64,000 nucleotides of DNA from Magnolia sinica (lineage: Eukaryota > Streptophyta > Magnoliopsida > Magnoliales > Magnoliaceae). The stretch covers positions 19,303,586-19,367,585 of the forward strand of contig NC_080589.1 of the NCBI RefSeq assembly GCF_029962835.1, read 5' to 3'. The notes under the pieces were generated by a model, which searched no databases, had not been told where the DNA came from, and was given only the letters and a program-made list of their open reading frames with translations. This document shows, piece by piece, positions 180 through 32,697 of this stretch (the stretch's first letter is position 1; each line of letters opens with the position of its first letter). The position numbers and the translations under genes are program-made.

Positions 180-305
180 GAGAAATTTAGGACTGTGGAC
201 CCCACCTTTTAGCCGGCTGTTTTTATGAAAGAAGACAAATCTTCTTGCAACTTAGACCTGCACGTGCGGATTACGAATTTCAGAATGAAAATACCCCTCC
301 TTTTT
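180..305 (+). repeat. Left terminal inverted repeat of the giant MULE
   Basis: It begins GAGAAATTTAGGACTGTGG and matches the reverse complement of 32571-32697 with only a few substitutions and small gaps. Weaker similarity continues for tens of bases inward (for example 'cgttgctttcac' near 333). The outermost base is G on the left and C on the right. Confidence 0.82.
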
Positions 306-659
306 AAATACTCCTTTCAATGAATTACTTTCAGCGTTGCTTTCACTCCGCTTAACGTAAAAACAGGTGCTTCCAGCCCTACGCTCTCGTGGAGCTAAGA
401 ACTGAAGTACGAAGGGTTTTCTTCTCATTTTTCCAACTGAAACATCTGTGAATCATCATCATTCTACATTTTCCATTTTTCATCTTGGATAGGGTTACGT
501 GAAATCCCACGAGCTGGTTGCATCTCCTTGAAAAGGTTCAAAATATTCTCTCACCCTAAAGCACCTCTCTTCAACCTACATTTGACCGATACTGCAGTAG
601 TTGGAGGTTCAGATCTTGAAAAAAAATGCTACACTTGTACAATGGCATTGCATGTGAAG
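306..659. other. MULE left subterminal region without recognised genes
   Basis: This is AT-rich single-copy-looking sequence between the terminal repeat and the first 21-bp array. No ORF of note is seen. It may hold promoter elements reading inward, but nothing specific is recognisable. Confidence 0.4.
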
Positions 660-2250
660 TTCGGTCAATTCCATGCGTTAGGCTTAGTCAATTTCATGCG
701 TTAGGCTTAGTCAATTTTATGCGTTGATTGATCAAATCCATGTCAAACTCGCTCAATTCAATTTGAAGCTCACTCAATTCCATTCTAGGGCTCACTTGAT
801 CTCATGCTAGGCTCACTGAATTCCATGTTTACCCTGCTCAATTTCATGCTAGGATCGCTCAATTTAATGTTTACCCAGCTTAATTTCATGGTAGATAAGG
901 TCAATTTAATGTTTGTCTCGATAAATATCATGCTACGATTGCTCAATTTAATGTTTGCCCAACTTAATTTCATGGTAGATAAGGTCAATTTAATGTTTGC
1001 CTCGATAAATTTCATGGTAGGATCGCTCAATTTAATGTTTGCCCAGCTTAATTTCATGGTAGATAAGGTCAATTTAATGTTTGCCTCGATAAATTTCATG
1101 GTAGGATCGCTCAATTTAATGTTTGCCCAGCTTAATTCCATGGTAGATAAGGTCAATTTAATGTTAGTCTTAATAAATTTCATACAAGGATCGCTCAATT
1201 TAATATTTGCCTAGCTCAATATTATCCTATGCTCGCTCAATTTACAGTTTTTCCATTCAATTTCCATGCAATGCTCGCTCAATTTAATGTTTGCCCCGCT
1301 CAATATCATGTTATGCTCGCTTGAAGAAATGTTTGCCCAACTCAATATTACGCTTTGCTCGCTCGTAATATCGTTTGCCCACATCAATATCATGATATGC
1401 TCGCTTAATTTATCGTTTGCCCAGCTCAATATCATGCTATGCTCTCTCGATTTAATGTTTGCTTGCATAGTTGAATTTATAGTTTGTCACGCTCAATTTT
1501 CAGTTTACACCATTCAATTTCATGCTTGCCGCGCTAATGTTTCGGATTCTCCCGCTAAATTTTTCAGTTTGCCCTGCTCATTTTCATGTTTGCCCCGCTC
1601 AATTTTCATGTTTGCCCCGCTGAAATTCATGTTTCCCCTGCTCAATTTGTAGTTTGCCCCGCTGAATATAATTTTTTCCCCGCTTAATTTCATGTTTGCC
1701 CCACTAAATTTCTAGTTTGCCCTGCTGAATTTCATGTTTACCCTGCAAATTTTCTAGTTTGTCACATTGAGTTTGATGTTTCCCCACTGAATTTCATGTT
1801 TGCCCGGTTCAATTTTCAGTTTGCCCCACTCAATTTCATGGTTGGCCCTCTGAATTTCATGTTTGCCCCACTCAATTTCCAGTTTGCCCTACTCAATTTC
1901 ATGCTTGCCCCGCTTAATTTCATGTTTGCCCCGCTCAATTTCATGTTTGCCCCACTAAATTTCATATATTGCCCCGCTTAATTTCAAGTTTGCCCCCCTT
2001 AATTTCATGTTTGGCCCACTCAATTTCTAGTTTGTCCCGCTGAATTTCATGCTTGCCCCACTCAATTTCCAATTTGCCCCGCTTAATTTCTAGTTTGGCC
2101 GCTCATTTTCATGCTTGCCCCGTTGAATTTCATGTTTGCCCCGCTCAATCTCCAGTTTGCCCCGCTCAATTTCATGCTTGCCCCGCTCAATTTCATGTTT
2201 GCCCCGCTTAAATTCCAATTTGCCCCGCTCAATTTCATGTTTGCCCCACT
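660..2250 (+). repeat. Left array of a degenerate 21-bp repeat
   Basis: About 75 units of a 21-bp repeat, with occasional 20- and 22-bp variants, containing the core CAATTTCATGTTTGCCCC. Early units (660-800) are more diverged and later ones more uniform. Because 21 is a multiple of three, both strands show spurious ORFs with heptad patterns such as MFAPLNF. The same repeat recurs at 3558-4013 in the same orientation, and at 17440-17955, 25495-26170, 27055-27285, 28925-29445 and 31078-31535 in reverse orientation, that is, inverted around the MULE genes. Confidence 0.9.
860..1195 (+). repeat. 84-bp higher-order repeat inside the left array
   Basis: The 21-bp units are grouped as four-unit blocks. 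The same landmark (CAATTTAATG) recurs at about 860, 944, 1028, 1112 and 1196, exactly 84 bp apart. The four unit types within a block differ from each other more than the blocks do, which indicates amplification of a four-mer. Confidence 0.8.
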
Positions 2251-2562
2251 CCTTTATGTTAGCCAAGATCTTGTCTTAATTCTTATGAAAATCCTTCCAA
2301 AGAAAAAAATTTCCTAAATAATACACTCGAGAAAAAAACAATTGGGCATTTTTTATCTAAAACATACTAGGAAACTTAATTTTTTACTAATATGGTGAGG
2401 AACTCATATACTTGTTAATGGAATAACATGTTTATGTCCACCAATTAATTGACATGAAAAAATTAAGTGCCAAAATGAATGATATTGAGAAAGACTTATG
2501 CTAACATATGTTACTTAATAAACTAATAGGGAATAGTTATGAACCTCTGGATTTCTTGACAC

Positions 2563-3128
2563 CTAGTACATGTCCCCATCAAAATCACTATTTGCCATCT
2601 CATCTGCCAATGATCGCGGCCCTTTGGTTGGAAAGAAAATAGCATATTTAGAATTTCCAACAACATTTATCAAATTCCCGATATAAGTCGCAGTGAAAAC
2701 ATGAATATCTCCAAAGTGTAGTCCAAGAGCCTTGTATACTAATATATTTTTCGAGATTTGCCTATTCTCTCGGTATTTTAGTAAGAAATAAAGCATGAAA
2801 ATGTTAATTAGGTAACAAATGCAAACATATCACATTAGGCTAAAACAATCAGAGGAATCACATAAACAGAGTAATATAGCAGCAGAATTAGAAACAGATT
2901 AACACAAACTTCAATAGCTTTTAGCATTCCAGTCGGATCTACAGTTCCCGTAAAATAGTAACACTCACTGGCATGAAGCCTTCCTCCCTTGAGACTTTTC
3001 AATTCTTCTATCATTATCACTGACAAGTGAGCTTTCAAATACAGTTCATCAAGAGGAATTCCACAGAGAATCATTCTCAACGTAAGAAAATCATCCATGT
3101 CTCCGTGATTCAATGCAGCTGCAATTGT
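2563..3128 (-). pseudogene. Captured fragment of an RNA-dependent RNA polymerase gene (RDR3/4/5-like)
   Basis: Two exon-like blocks on the minus strand match the catalytic region of plant RDR proteins. The first (about 3121-2880) reads MDDFLTLRMILCGIPLDE, then GTVDPTG and EVCV. The second (about 2775-2563) reads LGLHFGDIHV, RSLADEMANSDFDGD. DFDGD is the form of the catalytic DxDGD loop typical of the RDR3/4/5 clade, whereas RDR1/2/6 have DLDGD. A plausible 3' splice site (ttgcag) precedes the first block. The codon after DFDGDMY is TAG where Trp is expected (TGG to TAG), and similar sequence continues for a few residues before homology ends. Only the core is present, so no enzyme can be made. 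It lies between two parts of the MULE's left array, so it is a transduplicated host fragment. RDRs make double-stranded RNA in silencing. Clade assignment is inferred from the motif only. Confidence 0.82.
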
Positions 3129-3234
3129 AAGGACTAGTAATTAGTGGAATTTATCATAGAGGGTGTCAAAAATATTTTCTTAAAGAAGAAATTGCCCAAA
3201 GAACACTTTTTACTTTTTAGGTAATTCAGCTAGA

Positions 3235-3557: not shown

Positions 3558-4013
3558 ATTGCCCCGCTGAATTTCATGCTTGCCCCGCTGAATTTCATGT
3601 TTGCCCCGCTCAATTTCCAGTTTGCCCCGCTCAATTTCATGCTTGACCTGCTGAATTTCATGCTTGCCCTGCTCAATTCATGCTTGCCCCACTCAATTTC
3701 ATGCTTGCCCTGCTTAATTTCATGGTAGATAATATTAATTTAATGTTTGCCTCGATAAATTTCATGCTAGGATTGCTGAATTTACTGTTTGCCTAGCTCA
3801 ATATTATTCTATGCTTGCTCAATTTATAGTTTGCCCATTCAATATCCATGCAATACTCGCTCAATTTAATGTTTGCCCCGCTCAATATCATGCTATGCTC
3901 ACTCAAAGAAATGTTTGCCCAACTAAATATCGTGTTATGCACGCTTGAAATATCATTTACCCACATCAATATCATGATATGCTCGCTTAATTTATCGTTT
4001 GCCCAACTCAATA
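3558..4013 (+). repeat. Left array, second part, next to the transposase gene
   Basis: About 21 units of the 21-bp repeat in the same orientation as 660-2250. Its last third (about 3720-4013) closely matches the more variable block at 1190-1450, so the array was probably split when the RDR-bearing segment (2251-3557) entered. The array ends about 240 bp before the transposase start codon and may include its promoter. Confidence 0.85.
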
Positions 4014-4256
4014 CCACTTGAAACCATTCGTTAACGACGAAGGCCTAATCTGTATAAGATCTGGTTGTTTTTTTTTTCTTTTTTTTGAAATATAAACGCG
4101 TAGCTTGCATTTCATTTCCTTAAGCTCTTTATCATCCTCATCTATAATAGAAACTGAGCTGTCGGCCCTTCATTATTTAATTGAGTTTTGTCATATGGCA
4201 AGGTTCCATTGATTTATGATTCACTGATAATGTGTCATTGTATTGGTTTTCAGATA
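4014..4256 (+). promoter_or_regulatory. Transposase 5' leader with probable intron end
   Basis: This lies between the array and the first in-frame ATG of the PB1-like domain. A good plant 3' splice site (ttggttttcag) ends at 4253, three bases before the ATG at 4257, suggesting a 5'-UTR intron. No TATA box is convincing. Regulation from the array side is inferred. Confidence 0.4.
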
Positions 4257-6653
4257 ATGGCTACAAGAATCATGTGCTCTTTTGGCGGGGAGTTAGAATT
4301 TGAAAACAAACGATACTCGTACACAAGTGGAACATCAAAACAAATGACGTTACGTCTGGAGACTACGTACGAGGAGCTTCGATCTAGAATTTATAAGATT
4401 ATTAAGAGCAGACCAGAAGATTGTGATATTAGGATGAAAGTATTGAATCCTTGCACTAACGAATCAATGCCTCCAATCGAAATCGAAGACGACGTCAAAG
4501 AGTTCTTGTCTTACCAGTTTGAGCATTCGGATAAATTCATCCCGTTAGTCATCGAAACAATCCAACACATCAATACCACCACATACGTGGATAGTGTGGC
4601 TGATGAGTATGGTGTGGAATTTAAATACAATCCCTCTCCATTACAAGTTGTAGTAAGCAATGATCAATTACCCGAGCCGCTGCAAGCATTAAATGTCGTG
4701 ACTACGCAAGTCAGTGGTGTAATTGATATTAAAAGTAATTATGAATACAAGACACCGCCGTTAGCATCAACAACGGATCTGTCATCATCATCCACCATCC
4801 CATCTGTGCGTGTAAGCGACATTCTGCTTTGAGACCTTCCCGATACATCAAACCTCATGACTCGTCAAGTTCTCGCGTCATTTGATGATGATGCATTCAC
4901 CAATGCAAAAATGCTGGAATATACTGATTTGTTATGTGAACCGACCGATATAGCTGTTGGGCAAACGTTTAAGGACAAGAGTCGGTGCCAGTATGTTTTG
5001 AGTCAATTTGCAATTCAGAATAATTTTCGGTATAGAATAATACACTCAAATTCCAGGAGATTTACCGTGGTGTGCTTCGAAGATGCATGCGAATGGAGGG
5101 TTCATGCATCTCGGGAGAATGATACGAATATATTCAAAATATGGACTTATGAATCAAAACACACGTGCTGCATGGCATGGATGAAGAGTGATCACCGGCA
5201 AGCCAGCAGTAAGCTAGCGTGTGATCTAGTTATTAGCCGCATTGAACAACGCCTAGGGTTGAGGCCAGCTGACATTATCTTCGCCATGCAAGAGAAATAT
5301 AATATTCGTATTAGTTATTGGAAGGCATGGAAAGCTAGGGAGCTTGCAATTAATCACGTGATGGGGTCTTACGAAGACTCCTACAATCAACTCTCTTTGT
5401 ATTTGCATGAGTTGAGGAGGGCCAACCCAAGGACAATTACTGCCGTTTCTGTGAACCAACAGACTTGGAGGTTCGAGAGATGTTTTCTAGCTCTCGGACA
5501 ATGCATACGAAGTTTTCAGAAATCATTGCGGAGGGTATTGGCTTTTGACGGAACACACTTAAAGGGCAAATACAAGGGTGTGCTATTCATCGCCACTGCC
5601 TTAGATGGGGACAATCATATATTTCCACTTGCGTTTGGCATCGGAGAATCAGAGAACAGCAGTAGTTGGAATTGGTTCCTTACCCACCTTAACAATGTGT
5701 TAGGGTCTGTGGAGGGTCTTGTCATTATATCCGACCGACATAAAGGTTTGATGAAAGAGGTTCCCCAAGTCTTCCCGCATGTAATCCATGGGTATTGTGC
5801 GTACCACATCTATAGAAACTTAGTGGACACTTTTAAGGATAAGTCGTTGGAAATGTATTACTGGATGGCTGTGAAGACTTGCAGGAGGGCCGAATTTGAA
5901 AAAATAATGCATGATATCAAAATGGCCAATCCCCCAGTACATGCATGGTTGACAGAAATTGGGTACGAGAGATGGGCATCTTCGCACTTTCCAGGAAGAA
6001 GATTCAACTTGGTCACGACGAATATTTCTGAGTGCGTTAATGCCCTTTTCAAAGAAGCACGTGAATACCCCATTACGAAATTGATAGAGGCTGTAATACT
6101 GAAGATACATGAATTGTTTTACAAGAGACGAGAATCTGCGGCATCATTTGTGGGTCCATTGACACCATGGGCGGAGAAACAGTTAAAGGATATCGTGCAG
6201 AAGGCGCGAGATGTTCGCTGTCATGCTATTTCTCGAGATGAGTACTATGTTGTTGGAGATTATAACGATACGGTGAAGCTCAGTGAGTTTTCATGTACAT
6301 GTCGTGAGTTTGGCGCGAAGGGGTACCCTTGCATGCATGTCCTGTCAGCCTGCATAAACTACAATTTGGATCACTACTTATACTTCTCCCCATTTTACAC
6401 GGCGCATAATTACCTGACCACGTATAGTGAATCGGTGTATGCAGTATGCGACAAGAGCGAGTGGGAAATTTCAATAGCCTTCGAGGAGTATTGTGCATAA
6501 ATTAAACCCCCAGGATAGAGGAGGTCAGCTGGAAGACCCAAAAAGCTTAGAATTTCATCGCGTGGAGAGGAATCGAAAACAATAAAGTGTGGGCGATGCA
6601 AACAAACCGGGCATAATCGCCGGTCGTGCAAGTTTCTGATACCCGGTGTGTAG
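4257..6653 (+). pseudogene. MuDR-type MULE transposase, nearly intact, three in-frame stops
   Basis: One reading frame runs the full length. An N-terminal PB1-like/MuDR N domain (about residues 1-110) is followed by the MuDR DNA-binding region, the DDE catalytic core (FDGTHLKGKY for the first Asp, IISDRHKGL for the second, a Glu following in the YERWA region), the conserved CxxH helix element (CAYH), and a SWIM finger (CTC...CMH near 6295-6342). A CCHC zinc knuckle (CGRCKQTGHNRRSC) lies at the end. Stops are TGA at 4830 (before LPDTSN), TAA at 6498 and TAG at 6516; the first two fit CGA to TGA and CAA to TAA changes. The longest open stretch, 4857-6500, is 547 aa and holds the whole catalytic core. 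The enzyme would cut the inverted ends of this MULE family. The start at 4257 was chosen because of the adjacent splice acceptor; a start at 4188 is possible but lies in the probable intron. Confidence 0.93.
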
Positions 6654-18304: not shown

Positions 18305-21300
18305 TGAACGCCCTGAAAATTGGGGGTCGCGCATACGCTCAACTCCCGAGTTCCCAAGAGTCACTTTTAACCGATTTCGTTAATGCGTTTATTTAGGTTT
18401 AGTTACGTAGCTTGGAAGTTCCTGGAGCATAAAACATAACCACACCAGTCTACTGAAATAAGCAAAAAACAAACATACATTTATATACAGGTCCAAAAGT
18501 ACAAAAGGGGCGCATGACGCTACCCAATCAATATCTTAAAAGAATAATAAGTCCAAAAGAATAGAACTGAGCTCCCCCACTCAGTGACCCAATCCCGCCA
18601 ATCATGCTGGCGGAGAACCCTCCATCAGCTGGAAGTATGATAGCTCGTCTTCCTCGTCCAGGCTCACTTCGCCGGGCTCCTCTAGTCCCGAGTCACCTGC
18701 ATCTATGAATGAGTCTGGTTGGTGTTTTAAAACACCGTTCCAGAGTGGGAATGAGTGATCAACTCAGTGGGTGCTATTAATCTCAAGTGATCACAGGCAT
18801 CAATTATAATATGATCTTAATGAAAAGCAGACAATCACATACGTCTAAGTAATCTTTTCAATGCGCATGAATGTAGTATGGCATGATGCATGCCCTCACT
18901 ACAACGCTCCCTCGTGCGACACCATCTAACGATCGCCAATGCCAACACTCCCTCAGTGCGACCTCGACTGCCGAGTCGCCACCCTAACTAGTGCGATGCA
19001 ATGCGATCGTTTTAGCCGAGTTATTAGTTAGGTCCATTCATCCAGCAGATTGAGGATTCTGGTACACCCTACGTATTAATGCCCTAATCTAGGTGCAAGG
19101 CCAAGACCCCCCAATGCGTGAGGCCGAGGCTCCGCGGTCCGTGATCCCGTCAGGTTCCTCATCCCCGACTTCAAGCACATGAGGAGTGCCAAGAGAAAGG
19201 GATCGCTCGTGGTCACTACGGGGAGGCGCGGTACCCCAGCGTAGGCCGACAGCTCGGACACAGTGTCCCATTCCACCATGCCCGGCTCACGAGGCTGTGG
19301 ACCAATTTCAAGTGGGTTATTGATGAGCTACAACGGTTGTAGGGTGTCCCAGGTTCCATACAAGTGTGAGCAAACAGGGTTAACAATCATGGTTGGTCAG
19401 ACAGTAGGCTAGACTGCACGAGTCCAGGCAAGTGCATGGCGGAACGACATCGGGTGCAAGCAACCCATGTAGTCTAACTACAGTCGCCCACACACACTCG
19501 CCCAAATCCATGGGTTTAGCCTCAAGGCGGTCCTACCAACGAGACCGCCTTAACTCTCCTTGTTTTCTTGACCAACCCTAGGGTTTGGATGGTGGTCCAC
19601 AACATGTCAACGGACAGGGGTATCAACTAGCAAATCATCATCATGTTCTCACCCTCAACTTATAATTCAGATTCTTCTAATAAGCAAGCTAACACAATTT
19701 ATGAGCAACGATGCATGTGTGATGTGTGTGTTGGTGAGGAAGTTGCTCACTTCCTACAACTCATGGAAACAAATTACACAGGAAACAAATAAGTCACGCA
19801 TGCTATAGGGCATCATCATATGAGCAAATCCAACAAGACATCAACAAGTGATCATCAAATTACACCAAGTCATGTAAGAAGCAAGAACAACATCATGTGA
19901 GGGAATCAAATAAAACATACAATTCCATACCACTCTAAATAAGCATAAATTCCTAGGTTTTCTCTATATTCTCTAAATGCATCAACCAAGCAATCAAAAT
20001 CATTAAACTCATATTGAAATTGGTGCTAGGCCACCTAGGAGTAATAGTCCGCACCTATGGTTCATTGGAGATTCAGAAAATGCCCAAGGAAAGAGGGCTT
20101 TCGGGTCGATCGGCCGGAATCCCTACAACAAGCTCTTGCATGTTAGAATTCCAAGCCAAACCCACCTTCCTACATAGATTTCATCAAGAATGGGTGGAAA
20201 CCTTACCTAGGCAACCCAGGGTCGGTTGTTGAAGTCAAGGAGGAGAGTTTCTCCTTGTAAGAGAGGTAGGGAGTTGGAAGGGTTGGCTCTCTTGGGGCCC
20301 CACTCTGATCTAGGGTCCACCTTGGATCTCCTCCTTCTCTCTTTCTCCTCTTTACTCTCCTTCACTCTCCTTCTCTCTTGGTGGTTGTAGCAAATGAGAG
20401 AGAGAGTGTTATGAGAGATAGGGTTTATCCCCTAGACTTGGGCCCTTTGGCCTTGAGTTTCCCCAATTTTCCAAAATAGCCTACTAGGTCTCCTTTTTAG
20501 AGTTGGAGTGGCCCTAACCAAATTTGGTGGGTAGGTGCCCTATGGCCCGATTAGGGCCCGCGTAAAATTTGGGAACAAACGGATGGACGATTGTGGGGTT
20601 TGAGTCAACGGTTTTGATCTTTAAACGGCCCTGAGGGATCCATTCTGGTGATTGGAGTGGTTCTGGTAACCCTATGGCTATGAAAATCGTAGGATAGATG
20701 CTTCATGGCCCGATGAAGGGCCATGTAAAATTTGAGGACGATTTGTCACACCCCAAACTCGGGAACCGGGCTCACAAAATTCCCGATCGCCGAATCTGGC
20801 GCCGACAGCCTCCGTAGAACCCCATTCTCGGCTCCCAGCGCCCATTCGCCAGGTTCCGATCCTGGGATGCTACAAGGAGGATTTTTAACATCCGTTTGAT
20901 TCGTAATAAGCATAACCAAAGGCATAACCCACAAACAACAACCAAAAACTCCATCACATTTCCACTATAATCAAAAACTTTACAGGTACAATGAGCATAA
21001 GGGAAATACAATGAAGATAGACCAAAACTCCAAAAGAAGATCAGCCACGCGTCCAAGCCTCAGCGCTGCTAACACTACCTGCACGGTCGTGCATAAGCTT
21101 ATAAAGCTTAGAGGGTGGTGAAAGTGTATGCTCGAAGGTGATAATGTAGTCATGCGGTATCAGAGTAATGCGGAACATGTTGATGAATGCTAAGAATCCC
21201 ATTAGCCGTACGAGGCCATGCGGTGCAAAGAATGATGTCGGCCATACGAGGCCATGCAATGCAAAATGCAAGTCAAGCATACAAATCCTCATCTAAGTCC

Positions 21301-22189
21301 ACATGTCAATACGACTCAAATCGGGAATATCACCGAGGTCTAGTACACTCCAAACCAGATTGCCGCCCCATCGCGCGCAATAAGGTGAGTGGAAAAGACC
21401 TCACTATCCGCCTGCCAATATCGGGCTCGGCTCGTCAATAGCGGACCCATTCCTCGAGCTGGTCAGACTCAGCCTAGCATTGCCCCCTACTCTCGGGCGG
21501 GTAAGGCCGCACCCCCTTCCAACCGACCACGACACAGTGGAAAGCGCAACCGTCTGGTAATCGGCACCCAGCGCTCATGCACCCACTCGATCTAGAGCGT
21601 TGGAGCAACCTCCTGGTACCATAAGGGTTTAGGGACTTTCACCCGAGGATATCTATCGCACCCCATGTAGAAAAAGATTTTGTATCCAATCCTGCCAACC
21701 ACGATGCGTCTGTGGAGGCTATGGCCCTGATGTCGCTAGGGCGTAGAGTAACCATATCACATAATGCGAATGCATGAATCACACTATTCAGTCATGCAGC
21801 AATCCTGCGCATATCGTGCGCTCATTAGGGCAACACCCCCTATACGGGAGTCCCTAAACAATCTACCCAAAGACTTATGCTATGATCAGTCATCTCTCAT
21901 ATCAAGCATACATATGATGCATATGATCATGAATCATGGAATTTAAACATGCTATATAGGATGGATGACATGCATAACGAAGGTGGGCCTAGACGACCTG
22001 CACATAACACGCATGGGCCTAACAATGGGCCTTAGGGAATGTCATAATGCGGACATTTAACCACACTATGCTTGCAATGTGGACGTCAAACCACCATTGC
22101 TCCCAAGGCATAGCCCTGACGTAAACATCATTACATAAATCATAATGGGACTGCACATTGCAATGAACCTTAGGTATAACTCATTGGGC

Positions 22190-22480
22190 CTTCAATACAT
22201 CAAATGGGCCGTATCATATGGGCCTCATGTTCATCAAGCGGACCGCACCAATGGGCCATATGTACATTGCAATGGGCTATAACCCGTGGGCTTTAGAACG
22301 TGTCAAATAGGCCTACGTTTATGGGCCTTATACGTGTCAAATGGGCCTCGACAGTTGGGCTCCATATGTACATCAAATGGGCCTACTCACCTGGGCCTTA
22401 TATGTATCAAATGGGCCTCGCCAATTGGGCCCCATGTGCACATCAAATGGGCCTCAACTCATTGGTCACAAGTACTGAGG
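22190..22480. repeat. GGGCCT/CATCAAATGGGCC word array in family B
   Basis: Irregular repeats of ATGGGCCTNATATGTACATC with spacing of about 30-40 bp. The same block appears in the other two copies (about 39750-40200 and 53640-54070), so it is an inherent part of family B. Confidence 0.75.
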
Positions 22481-22514
22481 TGGGCCTCCCACCATCAATA
22501 AATTATATATAATA

Positions 22515-22516
22515 TA

Positions 22517-22569
<53 letters not shown>

Positions 22570-22800
22570 AAACATATAATATTATTTTTAATATAACATT
22601 ATATATTTATATATAACATATATTGTATATAATACAATATTATATATATATATATAACATATGATATTATATATATAATATAACATTATACATATAACAT
22701 ATATTATATGTAATATAATATTATATATATATATATATATACACACACCAGCACACACATGCACCCACACACACACGCGCACACACACGCACACAGAGGG
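22515..22800. repeat. (AC)n and AT-rich microsatellite in family B
   Basis: An (AC)n run of about 36 bp is followed by about 190 bp of mixed TATA-type simple sequence and a CACACACG run. Other family B copies carry (AT)n at corresponding places (40226, 55680). The short ORFs here are artefacts. Confidence 0.9.
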
Positions 22801-24344
22801 CTCCACCGTCCAGGCGGACGGTGGAGGTAAAACACATACATCACTGTGGGCTCCATGTGGGGCCCACCATAATGTTTATATTCCATCCAACCCGTTGGGC
22901 CTAAATAGAGGGTGGGAGGAATTTTCACCCTGATCCAAAACTTCTGTGGACCCCAAATGGGTTTCAAAGGTAGAGGTTCAATCCCACTATTCCATACGGT
23001 GTGGGCCACCGGAGTCTGGATCAGGCTGATTTTGGGGTGGGCCCACGTCGGATAGGGGCCCACCATATGAAGCAGTTTAGATAGCATATAAACATCGAGA
23101 GTGGGGCCACAGGCTGCAGTGGTGGCACGCTTTCGGTCGTCGTCGCCGGGCCAGCTGGCCAGCGACGGCCTTTGCTTCTGACTCGGCGGACAGACATTCT
23201 TCTTTATTATTTTGATTTACATTTTTTGATGGATTTTGCGGTGGGGTCCATATCCGGCGAATCCACTCGTCAGTGCTCTCCATGGCTCACCACGGCGATT
23301 CAAGTCAATATCGGACATGTTTTGGCGTACTAGGAAATTAGGGAAGGTTTGATGGTGAAAACCGCCATTTGGTATGGTATGGCCCGCCCGAAGGTCTGAT
23401 TAACCCCATCTTTTGGCTCAACGCCTAAAACAGATTTGGGAAAGGAATGGACGGCATGGATTTAATACATACATCAAGGTGGAGCCTACACCAGTGGGCC
23501 ATCCCCAAACCAAGCAATTATATTTTTTTCTTTTACCTTTTCCATGGAACGTCCAGCGTCCCTGGACGCTGGACTCTCTCCAAATGTACTAGAGGTGGGC
23601 CTTGCTTATGTGGGCCACCTCATGGAGGATGGTGTGTATACTACACACAAGGTGGACCCCACTCGTAGGTGAGTTGGATGGAATACATACCCTATGGTGG
23701 GGTCCATTCAAGTGGGCCACACATAACCTCATAAAAATAAAAATAAAAATAAAAAATAAAACAATTAAAAATAAAAAGGGAGAGAGATAGAGAGTGAGAC
23801 CGTGTGATGGAGGGACCCCGGCACTATGGGCCCTCCCTTGCACTAAATCATACATCAAGTGGGTCCCATTTTATGTGGCCCATTAAAAATTAAATCCAAC
23901 GGTGGAGATCCCTTCTCCACCAAATTAAACGGTCTAGATGACCCTAAACATACAAGAAAATAAACATCATGATGGGGTCCATGGAGAATGGCCCCATCAT
24001 GGAATGATCATGATGATCCAAGTGGGCCATCGGCCACATCTTAGGGTCCAATGTGAGATCCAAACCATTGATCGGTTGGCCTCACTTGGCCCATCTTATA
24101 AATATGAAAATCTACCCTATCAAGGCACCCACCACTTGATCTTCTTGCTCCCTTGGCTTCCTTAGTTCCTTGAGCTCCTCTTTGATGGTGGAAGATGAGA
24201 AATGGATGGTTGAGATGAGAGATCAAGGGGGAGGAGATGGGCCACACTTGAAACTTGGGAGAGAATGGGAGAGGGTCTCATACGTATGGTGCTCTCTCTC
24301 TTGGATTGGATTTTTAAAAAAATGAATAAGAGAGATAGTTGTAA

Positions 24345-24386
<42 letters not shown>
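24345..24386. repeat. (GA)n microsatellite in family B
   Basis: A run of about 20 GA units near the 3' part of family B. Matching runs sit at 42121-42160 and around 55866-55890 in the other copies. Confidence 0.9.
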
Positions 24387-24388
<2 letters not shown>

Positions 24389-25494
24389 AGATGGGTGATG
24401 GAGTGATGGGGGATGGTTTGGGTTGAAAATGGTAAAAAGAGGTATGGTTGTTGTTGAAATTTGGAAAAGAGGAGTGGTGAGGTGGAAAGAATGGTGGACT
24501 TTTGTAAAAGGTGGTGATGGGTTGTTGTACTTGAGGTATGGGATGCTTTAATGGTTGATTGATGGGACTAATAGTAGAGATTCCCTCGAAATCCGCAACG
24601 CGCGGTGTTTCTTCGGAATAAACGCTGATCGGCATCTTCTTGCCTGGGTATCGGTTCGGTGCGCAAGTCACGGCGTTGGAACCGCGGCGACGACGCGGTC
24701 GCTATGATATAACTTTCGGACCAAGCCGACGTCGGTGCGCGGGACCTGGCTTAGGATCGTGCGCAAATACCGAATACGGTGCGAAGGTTGCCAGAATTTG
24801 ACCGGAAGGACCGCGGAAGCTAACGGAACAGTACGGATTAGGACACGGGTCTTACACGATTGGACCTGGGGTTTGGTCGTACGGGTCCGATTTGTGATCG
24901 ACGGTCACCATTCCACGATCGGGCCATGAAGAGGGGGTGGGTGGGTGTAGAAAAATCCATTAGACCTCCACCATAAATATAGAAGAGATTCGATGGTTGG
25001 ATAGCCTGGTATCTCGGCTTCATTTGCAAGCCCCAGATTTTGGTCCTGACATTGGTGGGGTGCATTTAGTTGGTGCTAGATCCCACTTCTGGGTGTTCGT
25101 TAGGTCTGCGGTCCGCGATGGTCCACAAGCCCAGTGAGCTCTATGGTTCCCTAAATTTTTAGATTTTTCTGACCTTCTCGCGTCGCGGTATAGCCGTACG
25201 GGCTGAATGGTCATCCGGTTGGGCGGCCCACACTCGGTCTTGTCATGGTCCGTCAGGTTTATTCAAATGGGCTAATCCTATGTTAATTAGCTTATGGTAC
25301 CCCCACCGCGTGTGTTTTAAACAATCAGTCCTGTGGAAAATCCTACGTGGATGCCCAAGGACACTGTACTGGTTGAACGGGTTGTTACAATGACTTTACT
25401 TAATACAATGGGAGCAGACTGACTAACTCAGTACGCAATCCGATTACGCTTGCTATGATGTTTTATTTGTAATACATCATGTTCATTGGATTAT

Positions 25495-26170
25495 ATATAC
25501 ACCAAAACCCCATATTTGAGAGGGAACCTAGACATTGAGGGAAGGAACCTAGATATTGAACAGGGCAAACATGAAATTCAACGGATGAAACAAAAAATTC
25601 AATGGGAAAAACTAAACAATGAGTGGGGCAAACATGAAATTCAACGGGCCAAACATGAAATTCAGCGGGGCAAATTATGAAATTAAGCGGACCAAACTAA
25701 AAAATCAGCGTGGCAACCTGAAAAATCAGCAGGGGAAACATAAAATTGTGCGGGGCAAACTAGAAATTAAGCAGGGCTAACTAGAATTTTAGCGGGGGAA
25801 ACATTAAATTGAGCAGGGCAAGCTTGAATTTCAGCGATGGAAACTTGAATTTAAGAGGGGCAAACTTCAAATTCAGTGGGGCAAACTTGCATTTGAGCCG
25901 GGCAAACTAGAAATTCATCGGGGTAAACAAGACATTAAGCGGGAGAAACTTGAATTTTGGGCGGGGTAAACTAGGAAATCAACGGGGCAAACTAGGAAAT
26001 CAGCGAGGTAAACATGAAATTGAGCGGAGGAAACATGAAATTCAGTGGGGGAAACTTGAATTTGAGCGGGCCAAACTACAAAATCAGAGGGGTAAACTAG
26101 GAAATCAGTGAGGCAAACATGAAATTGAGCGGGGAAAACATGAAATTCAATGGGGCAAACTAGAAAATCA
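25495..26170 (-). repeat. 21-bp repeat array, right arm copy 2
   Basis: About 32 diverged units in the same orientation as 17440-17955. It contains more substitutions than the other arrays (ATCAGCGGGGCAAACTAG-type units mixed in). It ends directly in a broken spacer ('catta-cgcccactgt'). Confidence 0.85.
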
Positions 26171-26176
26171 TTACGC

Positions 26177-26687: not shown

Positions 26688-27053
26688 TACATTCAATGTG
26701 GCCCCAACTGAGTTTAAAATATACCTGTGGTGCGTGATTTCTTCCCTGGACCAACCATTTTCGGAAGAAGACAAAATGCTGATAAGGGGGCCCATAAAAT
26801 GAGTTTTTTTCATCTTTCTCATGGAACCGGAGCGTGGAAGGGGGGGGGGGGGGTGAAAGCAACGTGAAAGCATCAGCGGAAAGGGAGATGAAAATCAGAC
26901 AGTGAAAAGGGAGAGGAAAAGTGGACAACAGTGAAAAGGAGGGGTATTTTCGTCCTGAAATTCGTAATCTGCACGTGCAGGTCTAAGTTGCAAAAGAAGG
27001 TTTGTCTTCTTTCATAAAAACAGTTGGCTAAAAGGTGGGCTCCACAGTCCTAA
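26688..27053 (-). repeat. Internal copy of the MULE right end
   Basis: This copy matches 32333-32693 (including the region before the terminal repeat and most of the terminal repeat itself) but stops at CCTAAATT, four bases short of the true end, and runs straight into another 21-bp array. It includes a run of about 13 G near 26840. It shows that the right terminus has been duplicated. Confidence 0.8.
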
Positions 27054-27054
27054 A

Positions 27055-27285
27055 TTGAGTAGGGCAAACTAGGAAATGAGCGGGGCAAGCATGAAATTGA
27101 GCGGGGCAAACACGGAAATGAGCAGGGTAGGCATGAAATTAAGCAGGGCAAACATGAAATTGAGCGGGACAAACTGGAAAATCAGCGGGGCAAACATGAA
27201 ATTGAGCGGGGGAAACATGAAATCAGTGGGGCAAACATGAAATTGAGCGGGGGAAACATGAAATCAACGAGGCAAACTAGAAAAT
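27055..27285 (-). repeat. 21-bp repeat array, right arm copy 3
   Basis: About 11 units, clean and similar to those at 29210-29445, of which it is the counterpart in the 2.16-kb duplication series. It follows the truncated terminal repeat without spacer. Confidence 0.88.
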
Positions 27286-27414
27286 CATTATGCCCACTGT
27301 TTCTCATGGTATGATTCACTTGATATTTTGATATGCTTCAATTTGGGGCTCAACCGCTAAAATTAGATGGACGGCGTGGATATACTACATACATTCAATG
27401 TGGGCCCATCTAAG

Positions 27415-28121
27415 TGTAGGTTATAGGTTTAGGTTATAAGTGTAGGTTATAGGTTTATGTTTAAGTTAGGTTATGGGTTAAGGGTTAGGGAACTGAGAAT
27501 AGGTTAAGGTTTAGGTTTAGGAAATCGGGTTCGGGACCAGGTTTAGGTTTGGGTTTTCAAGTTTAGGTTTAGGTTAAGGAGTTGAGATTAGGATTAGGTG
27601 TAGGTTTAGGTTTAGGGATTTGAGAATACATTTAGGTTACAGGTTTAGGTTTAGGTTATAAGTGTCGGTTATAAGTTTAGGTTTAAGTTAGGTTATAGGT
27701 TAAGGGTTAGGGAACTAAGAATAGGTTAAGGTTTAGGTTTAGGAAATCGGGTTCGGGACCGGGTTTAGGTTTGGGTTTTCAAGTTTAGGTTTAGGTTTAG
27801 GATTAGGTGTAGGTTTAGGTTTAGGGATTTGAGAATACATTTAGGTTATAGGTTTAGGTTTAGGTTATAAGTGTCGGTTATAGGTATAGGTTTAAGTTAG
27901 GTTATGGGTTAAGGTTTAGGGAACTGAGAATAGGTTAAGATTTAGGTTTGGGAAGTTGGGTTCGGGACCGGGTTTAGGTTTAGGTTAAGGAGTTGAGATT
28001 AGGATTAGGTGTAGGTTTAGGTTTAGGGATTTAAGAATACATTTAGGTTACAGGTTTAGGTTTAGGTTATAAGTGTCGGTTATAGGTTTAGGTTTAAGTT
28101 AGGTTATAGGTTAAGGTTTAG
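27415..28121 (+). repeat. TTTAGG telomere-like degenerate array, unit 1a
   Basis: Dominated by GGTTTAGG with variants TTATAGG and TTTAAG, plus the phrases 'gggttcgggacc' and 'gatttgagaatacattt'. These phrases recur about every 210-220 bp (near 27525, 27745 and 27957), so there is a higher-order period. The plant telomere repeat is TTTAGGG; here most units lack the third G. Confidence 0.85.
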
Positions 28122-28514
28122 GGCCCGTTTGCCCCGGCAGATTGGAAGGGATTGAATGGTATTAGGGTGGATGACATGGATTTCTAGGTAATGATGGTGT
28201 TGTCGGTGGATTGTCTGGAGATCCATGGGATTGCTATATCCTTGGATTGTTATATCCAATCTGTTTGGCACGCCCGGCCAATCTTGGGATTAAACCTTCT
28301 CATCCCTTCCAATCCCTCAAACCAAACACGTCCCACACAAATTTGAAAGGATTAGGGTGGATTGGATGGGATTTAAAGGTAATGATGGTGTTGTCAGTGG
28401 ATTGTCTTAAGATCCATGGGATTGGGATCAGATCACCAACTTTATTTGGCACGCTAGGACAATCCCGGGATTTGACTTCCAATCCCTTCCAATTCGACCG
28501 GCCAAACGGCCCCC
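28122..28514. mobile_element. Tourist-like MITE, copy 1
   Basis: 393 bp with inverted ends (GGCCCGTTTG... and ...CAAACGGCCCC, extended by GATTGGAAGGGATTG inward) and a 3-bp duplication TAG on both sides, inserted in the TTTAGG array. The interior is a loose head-to-tail dimer, since the 'ggtaatgatggtgttgtc' block occurs twice. PIF/Harbinger affiliation is inferred from end sequence and 3-bp duplication. Confidence 0.78.
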
Positions 28515-28924
28515 TAGGGAACTGATAATAGGTTAAGGTTTAGGTTTAGGAAATCAGGTTCGGGACCGGGTTTAGGTTTAGGTTTTCAAGTTCAGGTTTA
28601 GGTTAAGGAGTTGAGATTAGGATTAGGTGTACGTTTAGGTTTAGGGATTTGAGAATACATTTAAGTTTTAGGTTATAAGTGTAGGTTATAGGTTTAGGTT
28701 TAAATTAAGTTATAGGTTAAAGTTTAGGGAATTGAGTATAGGTTAAGGTTTATGTTTAGGGATTTGAAAATACATTTAGGTTTTAGGTTACAAGTGTACA
28801 ATATAGGTTTAAGTTTAAGTTAGATTATAGGTTAAGGTTTAGGGAATTGAGAATAAGTTAAGGTTTAGGTTTAGGGATTTGAGAATACATTTAGGTTTTA
28901 GGTTTAGGCTTAGGTTTAGGTTTT
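28515..28924 (+). repeat. TTTAGG telomere-like degenerate array, unit 1b
   Basis: Continuation of the array after the MITE, with the same GGTTTAGG words and the 'gatttgagaatacattt' landmark three times. It passes directly into the 21-bp array at 28925. Confidence 0.85.
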
Positions 28925-29445
28925 GAGCGGGGGCAAACATGAAATTGAGTGGGGGCAAATTAGAGAATCAGCGGGGCAAACATGAAATTGAGGAGGGGAA
29001 ACGTGAAATTGAGTGGGGCAAACTAGAAATTGAGCCGGGCAGGCATGAAATTGAGCGGGGCAAACATGAAGTTGAACGAGGCAAACTAGGAAATGAGCGA
29101 GGCAACCATGAAATTGAGCGGGGCAAACTAAGAAATGAGCGGGGCAATCATGAAATTGAGCGGGTCATACTAGGAAATGAGTAGGGCAGGCATGAAATTG
29201 CGCAGGGCAAACATGAAATTGAGCGGGGGAAACATGAAATTGAGCGGGGCAAACACGGAAATGAGCGGGGTAGGCATGAAATTGAGCGGGGCAAACATGA
29301 AATTGAGCAGGACAAACTGAAAAATTAGCAGGGCAAACATGAAATTGAGCTGGGGAAACATGAAATCAGCGGGGCAAACTATAAAATTAGCGCGGCAAAT
29401 ATGAAATTGAGCGGGGGAAACATGAAATCAACGAGGCAAACTAGA
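28925..29445 (-). repeat. 21-bp repeat array, right arm copy 4
   Basis: About 25 units, among the least diverged in the window. Same orientation as the other right-arm arrays. It is followed by the CATTATGCCC-type spacer (here 'aatatgccca'). Confidence 0.9.
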
Positions 29446-29579
29446 AAATCAATATGCCCACTGTTTCTCGTGGTATGATTCACTTGATATTTTGATATGC
29501 TTCAATTTGGGGTTCAACCGCTAAAATTAGATGGACGGCGTGGATATACTACATACATTCAATGTGGGCCCATCTAAGT

Positions 29580-30285
29580 GTAGGTTATAGGTTTAGGTTA
29601 TAAGTGTAGGTTATAGGTTTACGCTTAAGTTAGGTTATGGGTTAATGGTTAGGGAACTGAGAATAGGTTTAAGGTTTAGGTTTAGGAAATCGGGTTCGGG
29701 ACCAGGTTTAGGTTTGAGTTTTCAAGTTTATGTTTAGGTTAAGGAGTTGAGATTAGGATTAGGTGTAGGTTTAGGTTTAGGGATTTGAGAATGCATTTCG
29801 GTTACAGGTTTAGTTTAGGTTATAAGTGTCGGTTATCGGTTTAGGTTTAAGTTAGGTTATAAGTTAAGGGTTAGGGAACTGAGAATAGGTTAAGGTTTAG
29901 GTTTAGGAAATCGGGTTCGGGACCGGGTTTAGGTTTGGGTTTTCAAGTTTAGGTTTAGGTTTAGGATTAGGTGTAGGTTTAGGTTTAGGGATTTGAGAAT
30001 ACATTTAGGTTATAGGTTTAGGTTTAGGTTATAAGTGTCGGTTATAGGTATAGGTTTAAGTTAGGTTATGGGTTAAGGTTTAGGGAACTGAGAATAGGTT
30101 AAGGTTTAGGTTTAGGAAATCGGGTTCGGGACCGGGTTTAGGTTTAGGTTAAGGAGTTGAGATTAGGATTAGGTGTAAGTTTAGGTTTAGGGATTTAAGA
30201 ATACATTTAGGTTACAAGTTTAGGTTTAGGTTATAAGTGTCGGTTATAGGTTTAGGTTTAAGTTAGGTTATAGGTTAAGGTTTAG
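29580..30285 (+). repeat. TTTAGG telomere-like degenerate array, unit 2a
   Basis: Counterpart of 27415-28121 with scattered substitutions. The 'gggttcgggacc' landmark recurs near 29690, 29910 and 30120. Confidence 0.85.
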
Positions 30286-30678
30286 GGCCCGTTTGCCCCG
30301 GCAGATTGGAAGGGATTGAATGGTATTAGGGTGGATGGCATGGATTTCTAGGTAATGATGGTGTTGTCGGTGGATTGTCTGGAGATCCATGGGATTGCTA
30401 TATCCCTGGATTGCTATATCCAGTCTGTTTGGCACGCCCGGCCAATCCTGGGATTAAACCTTCTCATCCCTTCCAATCCCTCAAACCAAACACGTCCCAC
30501 ACAAATTTGAAAGGATTAGGGTGGATTGGATGGGATTTAAAGGTAATGATGGTGTTGTCAGTGGATTGTCTTAAGATCCATGGGATTGGGATCAGATCAC
30601 CGACTTTATTTGGCACGCTAGGCAAATCCCGGGATTTGACTTCCAATCCCTTCCAATTCGACCGGCCAAACAGGCCCC
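30286..30678. mobile_element. Tourist-like MITE, copy 2
   Basis: 393 bp, same TAG duplication, exactly 2164 bp after copy 1 and nearly identical to it. It was copied with the surrounding unit rather than inserted independently. Confidence 0.8.
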
Positions 30679-31077
30679 TAGGGAACTGATAATAGGTTAA
30701 GGTTTAGGTTTAGGAAATCGGGTTCGGGACCGGGTTTAGGTTTAGGTTTAGGTTAAGGAGTTGAGATTAGGATTAGGTGTACGTTTAGGTTTAGGGATTT
30801 GAGAATACATTTAAGTTTTAGGTTATAAGTGTAGGTTATAGGTTTAGGTTTAAATTAGGTTATAGGTTAAAGTTTAGGGAATTGAGAATAGGTTAAGGTT
30901 TAGGTTTAGGGATTTGAAAATACATTTAGGTTTTAGGTTACAAGTGTACAATATAGGTTTAGGTTTAAGTTAGATTATAGGTTAAGGTTTAGGGAATTGA
31001 GAATAAGTTAAGGTTTAGGTTTAGGGATTTGAGAATACATTTAGGTTTTAGGTTTAGGTTTAGGTTTAGGTTTAGGT
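30679..31077 (+). repeat. TTTAGG telomere-like degenerate array, unit 2b
   Basis: Counterpart of 28515-28924, ending with five uninterrupted TTTAGG-type units (GGTTTAGGTTTAGG) just before the 21-bp array. Confidence 0.85.
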
Positions 31078-31535
31078 TTTGAGCAGGAGCAAACATAAAA
31101 TTGAGTGGGGCAAATTAGAGAATCAACGGGGCAAACATGAAATTGAGGAGGGGAAACATGAAATTGAGTGGGGCAAACTAGAAATTGAGCTGGGCAGGCA
31201 TGAAATTGAGCGGGGCAAACATGAAGTTGAACGAGGCAAACTAGGAAATGAGCGGGGCAACCATGAAATTGAGCGGGGCAAACTAAGAAATGAGCGGGGC
31301 AACCATGAAATTGAGCAGGTCATACTAGGAAATGAGTAGGGCAGGCATGAAATTGCGCATGGAAAACATGAAATTGAGCGGGGGAAACATGAAATTGAGC
31401 GGGGCAAACACGGAAATGAGTAGGGCAAGCATGAAATTGAGAGGGGCAAACATGAAATTGAGCAGGACAAACTGGAAAATCAGCGGGGCAAACATGAAAT
31501 TGACGGGGGAAACATGAAATCAGCGGGGCAATGTA
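31078..31535 (-). repeat. 21-bp repeat array, right arm copy 5 (outermost)
   Basis: About 22 units, nearly the same unit order as 28925-29445. It is the outermost array of the MULE right arm and is followed by spacer sequence to 31657. Confidence 0.9.
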
Positions 31536-31657
31536 GAAAATTATTATGCCCACTGTTTCCCGTGGTATGATTCACTTGATATTTTGATATGCTTTAATTT
31601 TGGGCTCAACCCCTTAAATTAGATGGAAAAATGGATGGACGGTGTGGATATTCTACA

Positions 31658-32332
31658 GGAAACGGATTGGCTACTACCCCTGCCACCAGCCAATGGCTGG
31701 TGTTTGGTGCTCTGTGGGCCCCATCATGATGATCTTTGTTTTTAGCCTTCATCTGGGTCTTTTTATCATATTAAACAAAAATTGAGGTATATCCTGATCT
31801 CAATTGGACCACATTACAGGAAATAGTGTTTAATGAACATCGACCATTAAAAACTTTTTGGGGGCCATAAAAGTATTAGGTCAAGATGATCTTTGTTTTT
31901 AGCCTTCATCTGGGTCTTTATCACCTAAAAAACAAATTGGATTTCAGACAAACAGTACAGTGGGCCTCAGGAGGATTTCAAGGATGGATATCCAATCACC
32001 ATTGTTTTCCTCTAGCAGGCCACCAGCCAAATTTCCATCTAATTTGGGGCTCAACCCCTTAAATTAGATGGAATTTGAGCGGACAAAATGGATGAACGGA
32101 ATGGATGAAACACATACACCATGGTGGGGCCCACAGAGCACCGACCACCAGCCATGTACACCATGGTGGGACCCACAAAGGAACGACCACCAGTCATGTA
32201 CACCATGGTGGGGCTAAAGAGCACCGATCACCAGCCACGTACACCATAGTGGGGCCCACAGAGCACCGACCACCAGCCACGTAGATCATGGTGGGGCCCA
32301 TAGAGCACCGGAGGAGTAGCCAATCCGTTTCC
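31658..32332. mobile_element. MITE with GGAAACGGATTGGCTACT ends, inserted in the MULE spacer
   Basis: 675 bp with inverted ends of about 19 bp plus diverged continuation. It splits the spacer phrase 'ggatatactacatacattcaatg' seen intact at 27385. The flanks TATTCTACA and TATACCCAT resemble the expected 9-bp duplication of TATACTACA. The body holds a reverse copy of the recurrent cassette. MULE-type origin is inferred from the 9-bp duplication. Confidence 0.75.
32090..32310. repeat. ~48-bp tandem repeat inside the MITE
   Basis: About five copies of a unit with the words ACACCATGGTGGGGCCCAC, AGAGCACCGACCACCAGCCA. It explains why this MITE is longer than its relatives. Confidence 0.85.
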
Positions 32333-32570
32333 TATACCCATACATTCAATGTGAGCCCAACTGAATTTAAAATATACCTGTGTTGCGTGCTTTCTTCGCT
32401 GGACCGACCATTTTCAGAAGAAGACAAATGTTGATAAGGGGGGCCCACAAAAATGGTTTTTTTGTCTTTCTAACCCGCCGAAGAAAAGGGGTGAAAGCAA
32501 CGACAGTGAAGTAGCAGTGGAAAGGGAAAGGAAAAGGAAACAACTGAAAGGGGGAAGAAAAACAACAATG

Positions 32571-32697
32571 AAAAGGAGGGGTATTTTCGTCCTGAAATTC
32601 GTAATCTGCACGTGCAGGTCTAAGTTGCAAAAGAAGGTTTGTCTTCTTTCATAAAAACAGCTGGCTAAAAGGTGGGGTCCACAGTCCTAAATTTCTC
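32571..32697 (-). repeat. Right terminal inverted repeat of the giant MULE
   Basis: Reverse complement of 180-305 with few differences, ending AAATTTCTC. Sequence from 32333 to 32570 inward also matches the internal end copy at 26688-26930. Confidence 0.82.

What the first reader, a model, noticed from the sequence alone, without database searches (positions are those of the whole stretch)
180..32697. A giant MULE with matching ends and an identical 9-bp target duplication
Seen: 126-bp inverted ends, TTTTTTTAA on both sides, and flanks (1-170 and 32707 on) that join into one uninterrupted repeat cassette. About 24.7 kb after removing nested elements, with transposase and ULP1 protease inside, this would be among the largest cut-and-paste elements with both ends visible. 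Known: MULEs give 9-bp duplications, and Kaonashi-type MULEs carry ULP1 genes but are usually much smaller.
Basis: partly seen in the sequence, partly recalled or inferred. Interest (0 to 1): 0.93.

Follow-up and report, generated by a model that had tools for sequence, protein, structure and literature searches.

The report
Giant magnolia jumping-gene family, protease-armed
The window holds one member of a family of exceptionally long cut-and-paste DNA transposons in a magnolia, with matching ends, a 9-base target duplication, a transposase, a second gene resembling Arabidopsis proteins that shield transposons from silencing, and arrays of a 21-base repeat that may be that protein's landing sites.

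Summary
The core observation is real: 180-32697 has 94.5% identical ~127-bp inverted ends and an identical TTTTTTTAA duplication. It is not a freak: 22 of 27 candidate end pairs in the same genome (Magnolia sinica) have 7-9/9 matching duplications; mispaired controls reach 8 in 0 of 702. Sister copy E2 (22,934 bp) is colinear end to end and shows our 32.5 kb to be a ~23-kb element plus a 7,085-bp nested insertion and a ~2.15-kb duplication. The flank 'cassette join' is not supported. Transposase and a DUF1985-coiled coil-ULP1 gene form a conserved unit: 41 of 78 transposase places have a DUF1985 match within 60 kb, all 41 convergent. About 150 copies of a 21-bp unit per element sit in arrays, mostly facing inward from both ends, across the family. 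DUF1985 plus tandem target arrays resembles VANC anti-silencing (PMC5735166), so I propose a giant TIR-MULE with a VANC/KIU-like self-demethylation system; this mechanism is inferred, not shown. Grapevine has 16-18-kb MULEs, one with ULP1: a new, larger variant of a known kind.

The parts
171..179 (.). left target-site duplication TTTTTTTAA
32698..32706 (.). right target-site duplication TTTTTTTAA
180..304 (+). left terminal inverted repeat, GAGAAATTTAGGACTGTGG...
   Evidence: 94.5% to right end; 27-base end found 947+944 times genome-wide with up to 3 mismatches, backward control 0/0
32571..32697 (-). right terminal inverted repeat
   Evidence: right-end search
665..2251 (+). 21-bp tandem arrays, left subterminal, upstream of the transposase
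3559..4013 (+). 21-bp tandem array directly upstream of the transposase frame
4185..6500 (+). MULE transposase frame (DBD_Tnp_Mut, MULE, SWIM in 4833-6497); one in-frame stop at 4830-4832 in this copy
   Evidence: dN/dS 0.32 against copy E2 over 766 codons
8939..10048 (-). two abutting frames; the first matches Transposase_32 (putative plant transposon protein) below its cut-off
   Evidence: shared with E2 and E3
14451..17273 (-). DUF1985 - coiled coil - ULP1 (Peptidase_C48) gene, several exons, VANC/KIU-like; frame breaks in this copy; first exon not located
   Evidence: 802-aa annotated relative P0091
17443..17963 (-). 21-bp array upstream of, or in an intron before, the DUF1985 exons
18305..25389 (.). 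nested 7,085-bp LTR-like insertion (TG...CA), TSD ATGAC at 18300-18304 and 25390-25394; absent from E2
25549..26170 (-). 21-bp array
26934..27056 (-). internal right-type TIR lacking its last 4 bp, fused through AAATT to a 21-bp unit; counterpart in E2 and E3
27062..27277 (-). 21-bp array next to the internal TIR
27052..31543 (.). ~2.15-kb direct duplication (27052-29389 / 29195-31543, 95%); both copies match one stretch of E2
28923..29428 (-). 21-bp array
31079..31531 (-). 21-bp array, right subterminal

Best explanation
180-32697 is one insertion of a giant, TIR-bearing Mutator-like (MULE) family of Magnolia sinica. SHOWN: matching TIRs, a 9-bp target duplication, other copies with the same ends at other sites, a colinear ~23-kb sister copy, a transposase, and a DUF1985-coiled coil-ULP1 gene whose DUF1985 part is convergent with and linked to the transposase across the genome. 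Also shown: 144-162 21-bp units in each of the three elements read whole, in arrays near both ends and upstream of the transposase and of the located DUF1985 exons. INFERRED: the transposase binds the TIRs and moves the element by cut and paste, in trans for copies that lost the gene. The DUF1985-ULP1 protein acts like Arabidopsis VANC/KIU: it binds the 21-bp arrays in the family's own DNA and causes local loss of silencing marks, so that transposase is expressed and the TIRs become usable. The arrays give it family specificity and, spread from both ends inward, let it open a very long element. The role of the ULP1 (SUMO-protease-like) domain is unknown.
For: TSD test: 22 of 27 pairs at 7 or more of 9, 14 perfect. 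E2 colinear from end to end. E3, 26.6 kb with a 9/9 TSD, keeps the plan without a transposase. Purifying selection on the transposase: dN/dS 0.32 against E2, excess of synonymous changes p 2.6e-5 if 22% of sites are synonymous. 41 of 78 transposase places have a DUF1985 place within 60 kb, 41 convergent and 0 otherwise; shifted control mean 0.9, max 4 in 200. Arrays: 154, 144 and 162 units in ours, E2, E3, against 0-4 for 20 shuffled units in ours, 1 unit in the 31 kb beside the element and 2 in ~9.8 kb upstream. Arrays at the right end of 20 of 20 and the left end of 19 of 20 other TSD-supported elements (E2 and E3 among them), with 0-1 units in 1.2 kb of flank. VANC proteins carry DUF1985 and bind motifs in same-orientation tandem repeats in non-coding parts of their own TE (PMC5735166, passages). 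Review: KIU = VANC with Ulp1, same behaviour (PMC13317346, passages).
Against: No methylation, binding or expression data were available. The DUF1985-ULP1 gene has lesions in ours, E2 and E3 and in the C3:77.3-Mb copy, where an active-site cysteine is also replaced; P0091 is the one full-length relative found. Between ours and E2 the ULP1 exon shows no sign of constraint (dN/dS 0.87-0.94 on 9-14 changes; DUF1985 exon 0.46). Array orientation is inward-only in 14 of 20 left ends and 18 of 20 right ends; 4 left and 2 right ends are mixed, one left end is reversed, one has none. Symmetric subterminal arrays also fit a transposition role. The 21-bp consensus was used to find the units, so its constancy across copies is partly built in. 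37 of 78 transposase places have no listed DUF1985 partner within 60 kb, and 3 of 13 TSD-supported elements of 19 kb or more have none listed; both lists are capped.
Confidence: 0.6

Rival explanations
1. The 21-bp arrays are transposition sites: subterminal repeats bound by the transposase or an accessory protein to bring distant ends together, as the subterminal repeats of CACTA elements do (recalled). The DUF1985-ULP1 gene is conserved cargo with another function.
For: Arrays lie near both ends, mostly facing inward, in nearly all copies scanned, including those of 10-12 kb.
Against: Further arrays lie deep inside, directly upstream of the transposase and of the located DUF1985 exons; DUF1985 proteins of Arabidopsis are known binders of such arrays (PMC5735166); transposase-DUF1985 linkage is tight.
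Confidence: 0.3
2. Size is mere bloat: a normal 5-10-kb MULE swollen by old nested insertions shared by descent.
For: Ours contains a 7-kb nested insertion; the copies of 42-50 kb may well contain more (not read); six TSD-supported copies of 10-12 kb and one of 3.4 kb exist.
Against: In 30 of 41 linked pairs the transposase-to-DUF1985 distance is 7.1-17.7 kb, and ours, E2 and E3 share most of the middle. How much of that middle is ancient inserted DNA was not resolved.
Confidence: 0.25
3. Two MULEs joined: the internal TIR at 27056 is a real end and the outer 5.6 kb a second element or a chance duplication.
For: An internal right-type TIR exists, 88% identical to the right end over 212 bp.
Against: It lacks its last 4 bp and in ours is fused through a shared AAATT to a 21-bp unit; E2 and E3 carry its counterpart inside their own 9-bp TSDs, also without the first 4 positions. 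MULEs with extra internal TIRs and no internal TSD are known (PMC3310237, passages). It therefore dates from before these three copies spread.
Confidence: 0.04
4. One-off mobilisation of a chromosome segment caught between two unrelated MULE ends (macrotransposition), or an assembly join.
For: Size alone.
Against: A full colinear copy elsewhere and 21 further TSD-supported pairs with the same ends.
Confidence: 0.01

Closest known systems
KAONASHI (KI) MULEs / KIU-bearing VANDALs of Arabidopsis
   Same: MULE transposase with an ULP1-carrying gene in opposite orientation (PMC2528002 and review PMC13317346, passages)
   Different: described as non-TIR; ours has ~127-bp TIRs, is ~23 kb and is in a magnoliid
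VANDAL21 (Hiun) with VANC anti-silencing
   Same: DUF1985 protein; tandem repeats of a short motif in non-coding regions, arrayed in one orientation (PMC5735166, passages)
   Different: motif differs (YAGTATTAY against a 21-bp unit); no methylation data here; ours adds ULP1 and TIRs
Grapevine Mutavine-18 and Mutavine-1
   Same: large MULEs, 16.2 kb with ULP1 and 230-263-bp TIRs, and 17.7 kb with 70-bp TIRs (PMC2528002 Table 4)
   Different: no TSD length given for either in the table; ours is larger, with 22 TSD-supported pairs and 21-bp arrays
MULEs with multiple TIRs (tomato, Arabidopsis)
   Same: extra internal TIR without TSD beside an outer TSD-flanked one (PMC3310237, passages)
   Different: most of those do not encode transposition proteins; here the internal TIR is 5.6 kb inside and fused to a tandem array
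Barley Hvu_Abermu
   Same: 9-bp TSD, 138-145-bp TIRs, a reverse-oriented gene besides the transposase (PMC9168764, abstract and section 13)
   Different: 8.2 kb; no DUF1985, ULP1 or arrays mentioned in the parts seen

Membership tests
Mutator-like (MULE) superfamily, TIR type | MULE/Mutator transposase domain | tested here: met
   PF10551 E 3.2e-20, PF03108, PF00872, SWIM
Mutator-like (MULE) superfamily, TIR type | long terminal inverted repeats | tested here: met
   94.5% over 127 columns
Mutator-like (MULE) superfamily, TIR type | 8-11-bp, typically 9-bp, target-site duplication | tested here: met
   9/9 here; 22 of 27 pairs at 7 or more
Kaonashi (KI) MULE | ULP1 domain gene opposite to the transposase | tested here: met
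   genome-wide the DUF1985 part is convergent in 41 of 41 linked pairs
Kaonashi (KI) MULE | non-TIR termini (as described in Arabidopsis) | tested here: not met
   clear TIRs; so not filed as Kaonashi
VANDAL/VANC anti-silencing system | element-encoded DUF1985 protein | tested here: met
   PF09331 E 1.1e-14, above cut-off; P0091 PF09331+PF02902
[quoted passage not shown]
   that these are the bound motif is not shown
[quoted passage not shown]
   needs methylomes and transgenics
VANDAL | sequence kinship of transposase with Arabidopsis VANA | not tested
   no named VANA sequence was in hand; the 86 hits are unnamed or uncharacterised proteins for the most part, from Magnolia, Prunus, Quercus and others

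The most novel reading that the evidence does not exclude
A magnoliid lineage of MULEs became giant because it carries its own sequence-specific anti-silencing system: a DUF1985-coiled coil-ULP1 protein and ~150 mostly inward-facing 21-bp target sites per element that open a TIR-bearing transposon of 23 kb or more. It would place VANC/KIU-type self-protection outside the eudicots and outside non-TIR MULEs, and explain how cut-and-paste elements of this length keep transposing.
Probability: 0.35. Interest if true: 0.75.

Novelty: new variant of a known kind. Interest (0 to 1): 0.56.

Why it matters
It gives a multi-copy natural series of TSD-bounded MULEs of 3-50 kb in one genome, some with and some without transposase or the DUF1985-ULP1 gene. 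That makes two open questions testable: how long a cut-and-paste element can be and still move, and whether VANC-type anti-silencing with tandem targets is older and wider than the Arabidopsis and eudicot cases, including TIR MULEs.

Tried and rejected
Rejected: assembly join, one-off macrotransposition and two-element fusion (see rivals). Not supported: the flank-join claim; no held sequence spanned the joined flanks. First taken for a plain solo LTR: the nested 18305-25389; one search shows that its two ends match the two ends of one ~3-kb repeat at 42431-45395 while most of its middle does not, so it is probably a solo LTR with its own inner insertion. Led nowhere: the AlphaFold model of P0091 (mean pLDDT 48.6, only the coiled coil confident), not used for any fold search. 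The DUF1985-only protein search found 4 proteins and the composite search 4, all Magnolia sinica, so the spread in other plants is not known from here. P0091's first ~30 residues were not located in our element. Candidate pairs failing the TSD test: 5 of 27, of which C6:15496120-15511571 matches 8/9 by eye with a 1-bp offset and C6:15508692 is a rival left end for the same right end. The array scan covers 20 of the 22 TSD-supported pairs; ours is, the 3.4-kb copy had 14 units of mixed orientation, two failed pairs had 7 and 25 units, three failed rows were not scanned. Not answered: empty-site search, ULP1 genome search, Transposase_32 genome search. score only the best candidates and one search lists only 100 exact places of 1,891, so family counts are lower bounds and the 27 pairs are not a random sample: they favour copies like ours. 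Sasaki et al. 2022, the primary paper on KIU anti-silencing, was not held and not read; it is known to me through the review.
Full report
WHAT WAS CHECKED. The ends stand as described: 180-304 against 32697-32571, 94.5% over 127 columns, opening GAGAAATTTAGGACTGTGG, flanked by TTTTTTTAA at 171-179 and 32698-32706. The window lies at C17:19303586-19367585 of a 1.84-Gb genome. Its contig lengths equal those listed for Magnolia sinica proteins, and the published M. sinica genome is 1.84 Gb (PMC10999834, abstract and passages), so I take the host to be M. sinica.

A FAMILY, NOT A FREAK. The 27-base end occurs 947 + 944 times (up to 3 mismatches), its backward control 0 + 0. From the places listed I paired ends facing each other and fetched the flanks: 27 candidate pairs with ours, two of them rival left ends for one right end. 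22 of 27 have 7 or more of 9 matching target bases (14 perfect, 5 with 8, 3 with 7); mispaired ends reach 8 in 0 of 702 and 7 in 6 of 702. TSD-supported lengths run from 3.4 to 49.7 kb; the two middle values are 19.9 and 22.3 kb, and 15 of 22 are 15 kb or more (list). These lengths include any nested DNA except where stated.

WHAT IS THE REAL LENGTH. Copy E2 (C3:93024901-93047834, 22,934 bp, TSD TTTCAGAAA 9/9) is colinear with ours from end to end; the longest block is 17.2 kb at 95.2%. It lacks 18305-25389, which is bounded by ATGAC on both sides and runs TG...CA (read from the printout). Both ends of this insertion match the ends of one ~3-kb repeat at 42431-45395, so it is probably a solo LTR with an insertion of its own. 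Both copies of the ~2.15-kb direct repeat 27052-29389 / 29195-31543 match one stretch of E2. Ours is therefore about 23.3 kb of family sequence. E3 (C7:17255188-17281814, 26,627 bp, TSD 9/9) has the same plan but lacks the transposase region.

INTERNAL TIR. A right-type TIR ends at 27056 in ours, at 19990 in E2 and 22964 in E3, 85-88% identical to our right end and in each case starting at its fifth position. In ours it lacks the outermost TCTC and continues, through AAATT shared by both partners, into a 21-bp unit (the E2 and E3 junctions were not printed). That is the mark of a microhomology join or template switch, not of a nested insertion (inference). MULEs with extra internal TIRs are known (PMC3310237, passages).

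GENES. 4833-6497(+) has DBD_Tnp_Mut, MULE and SWIM domains; the frame extends upstream to 4185 with one stop at 4830-4832 in ours. Against E2, dN/dS is 0.32 over 766 codons, with more synonymous changes than neutral (p 2.6e-5, assuming 22% synonymous sites). On the other strand, 17273-14451 carries DUF1985, a long coiled coil and a ULP1 peptidase with His, Asp and Cys positions present in ours (motif reading recalled). An annotated M. sinica protein, P0091 (802 aa, LOC131256580 isoform X2), has both domains in one chain. Ours has two frame breaks; E2, E3 and the C3:77.3-Mb copy have lesions of their own. The ULP1 exon between ours and E2 gives dN/dS 0.87-0.94 on few changes, so no constraint is seen there; the DUF1985 exon gives 0.46. 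8939-10048(-) has a sub-threshold match to Transposase_32.

LINKAGE. 78 transposase and 146 DUF1985 places were scored. 41 of 78 transposases have a DUF1985 place within 60 kb, 41 convergent and 0 in any other arrangement, 30 of the 41 at 7.1-17.7 kb; with positions shifted the mean is 0.9 and the maximum 4 in 200 trials. So the two genes travel together, also in a sister group about 80% identical to ours. Reading the coordinates by eye, of the 13 TSD-supported elements of 19 kb or more, 8 hold a listed transposase, 10 a DUF1985 gene and 7 both; the lists are capped, so these are lower bounds. The transposase in the C3:77304502-77328674 element has no stop in the matched stretch, in a frame given as 805 aa; 23 of 78 transposase places have none.

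21-BP ARRAYS. Units like GCTCAATTTCATGTTTGCCCC (15 or more of 21) number 154 in ours, 144 in E2 and 162 in E3; 20 shuffled versions of the unit give 0-4 in ours, and 31 kb beside the element gives 1. In ours all but two single units fall into arrays at both ends, upstream of the transposase and before the located DUF1985 exons; one single unit lies in the DUF1985-ULP1 gene. In 20 other TSD-supported elements (E2 and E3 among them) scanned over 2.4 kb at each end, arrays are present at 20 of 20 right ends and 19 of 20 left ends; flanks hold 0 units in 19 and 1 in one. Left ends: 14 all forward, 4 mixed, 1 all reverse, 1 none. Right ends: 18 all reverse, 2 mixed. The constant consensus across copies is partly built in by the search; the independent repeat finder gives near-identical units for separate arrays of ours.

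HOW IT PROBABLY WORKS. VANC proteins of Arabidopsis VANDAL MULEs carry DUF1985, bind a short motif and strip methylation from their own family; the motifs sit in tandem repeats, in one orientation, in non-coding parts (PMC5735166, passages; PMC10398659, passages). A VANC with Ulp1 is called KIU and acts likewise (PMC13317346, passages). Our family has the protein type, the linkage and the arrays. I therefore infer that the DUF1985-ULP1 protein binds the 21-bp arrays and opens the element for expression and transposition. Transposase-binding subterminal repeats are the main rival, and nothing measured here separates the two. The review places the Ulp1 capture near the monocot-eudicot split; a magnoliid with it would fit an origin at or before the magnoliid-eudicot split, or independent capture.

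SIZE IN CONTEXT. More than 95% of maize and rice coding-MULEs are 2-10 kb without nested DNA (PMC3903597 section 13); barley Hvu_Abermu at 8.2 kb was called much larger than the MULEs it was set beside, 1.5-4.9 kb (PMC9168764 section 13). But grapevine Mutavine-18 (ULP1, TIRs) is 16.2 kb and Mutavine-1 17.7 kb (PMC2528002 section 8). I saw no paper describing this Magnolia family in the listings, and the M. sinica genome paper's main text has 0 occurrences of MULE, Mutator or TIR.

THE FLANKS. With 1.5 kb on each side joined, no sequence held spans the junction; the right flank begins a complete ~536-bp inverted-ended repeat at 32722, and in the fetched loci left repeat matches end 91 bp before the junction. 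The genome-wide search for an empty site did not complete in five tries, so the empty allele remains untested.

CHANGES AFTER CHECKING. 

Noticed in passing
window 18305-25389: Nested 7,085-bp LTR-like insertion with ATGAC duplication; its ends match a ~3-kb repeat at 42431-45395, most of its middle does not.
   Followed up: partly
window 27417-31079: Degenerate TTTAGG-type tandem repeats, one base shorter than the plant telomere unit (recalled), with ~209-bp and ~115-bp higher-order periods inside the right part of the element.
   Followed up: no
window 32722-33257: Inverted-ended ~536-bp MITE-like repeat just outside the right TSD; partial or full relatives lie inside the ends of many family members.
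   Followed up: partly
genome places, e.g. C14:54035978, C9:75011064, C14:68534557: A sister transposase group, about 80% identical to ours; 8 places have frames given as 807-811 aa without stops and some are convergent with DUF1985 matches; possibly younger or still active. Its TIRs and lengths were not read.
   Followed up: no
C9:61018659-61019058 (L077): Two left-type TIRs in the same orientation, 2 bp apart.
   Followed up: no
window 12099-12525: 126-bp tandem repeat (3.4 copies, 93%) in the shared middle of the element.
   Followed up: no
window 8939-10048: Reverse-strand frames, one resembling Transposase_32 (putative plant transposon protein) below cut-off, shared by ours, E2 and E3; possibly a third element gene.
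   Followed up: partly
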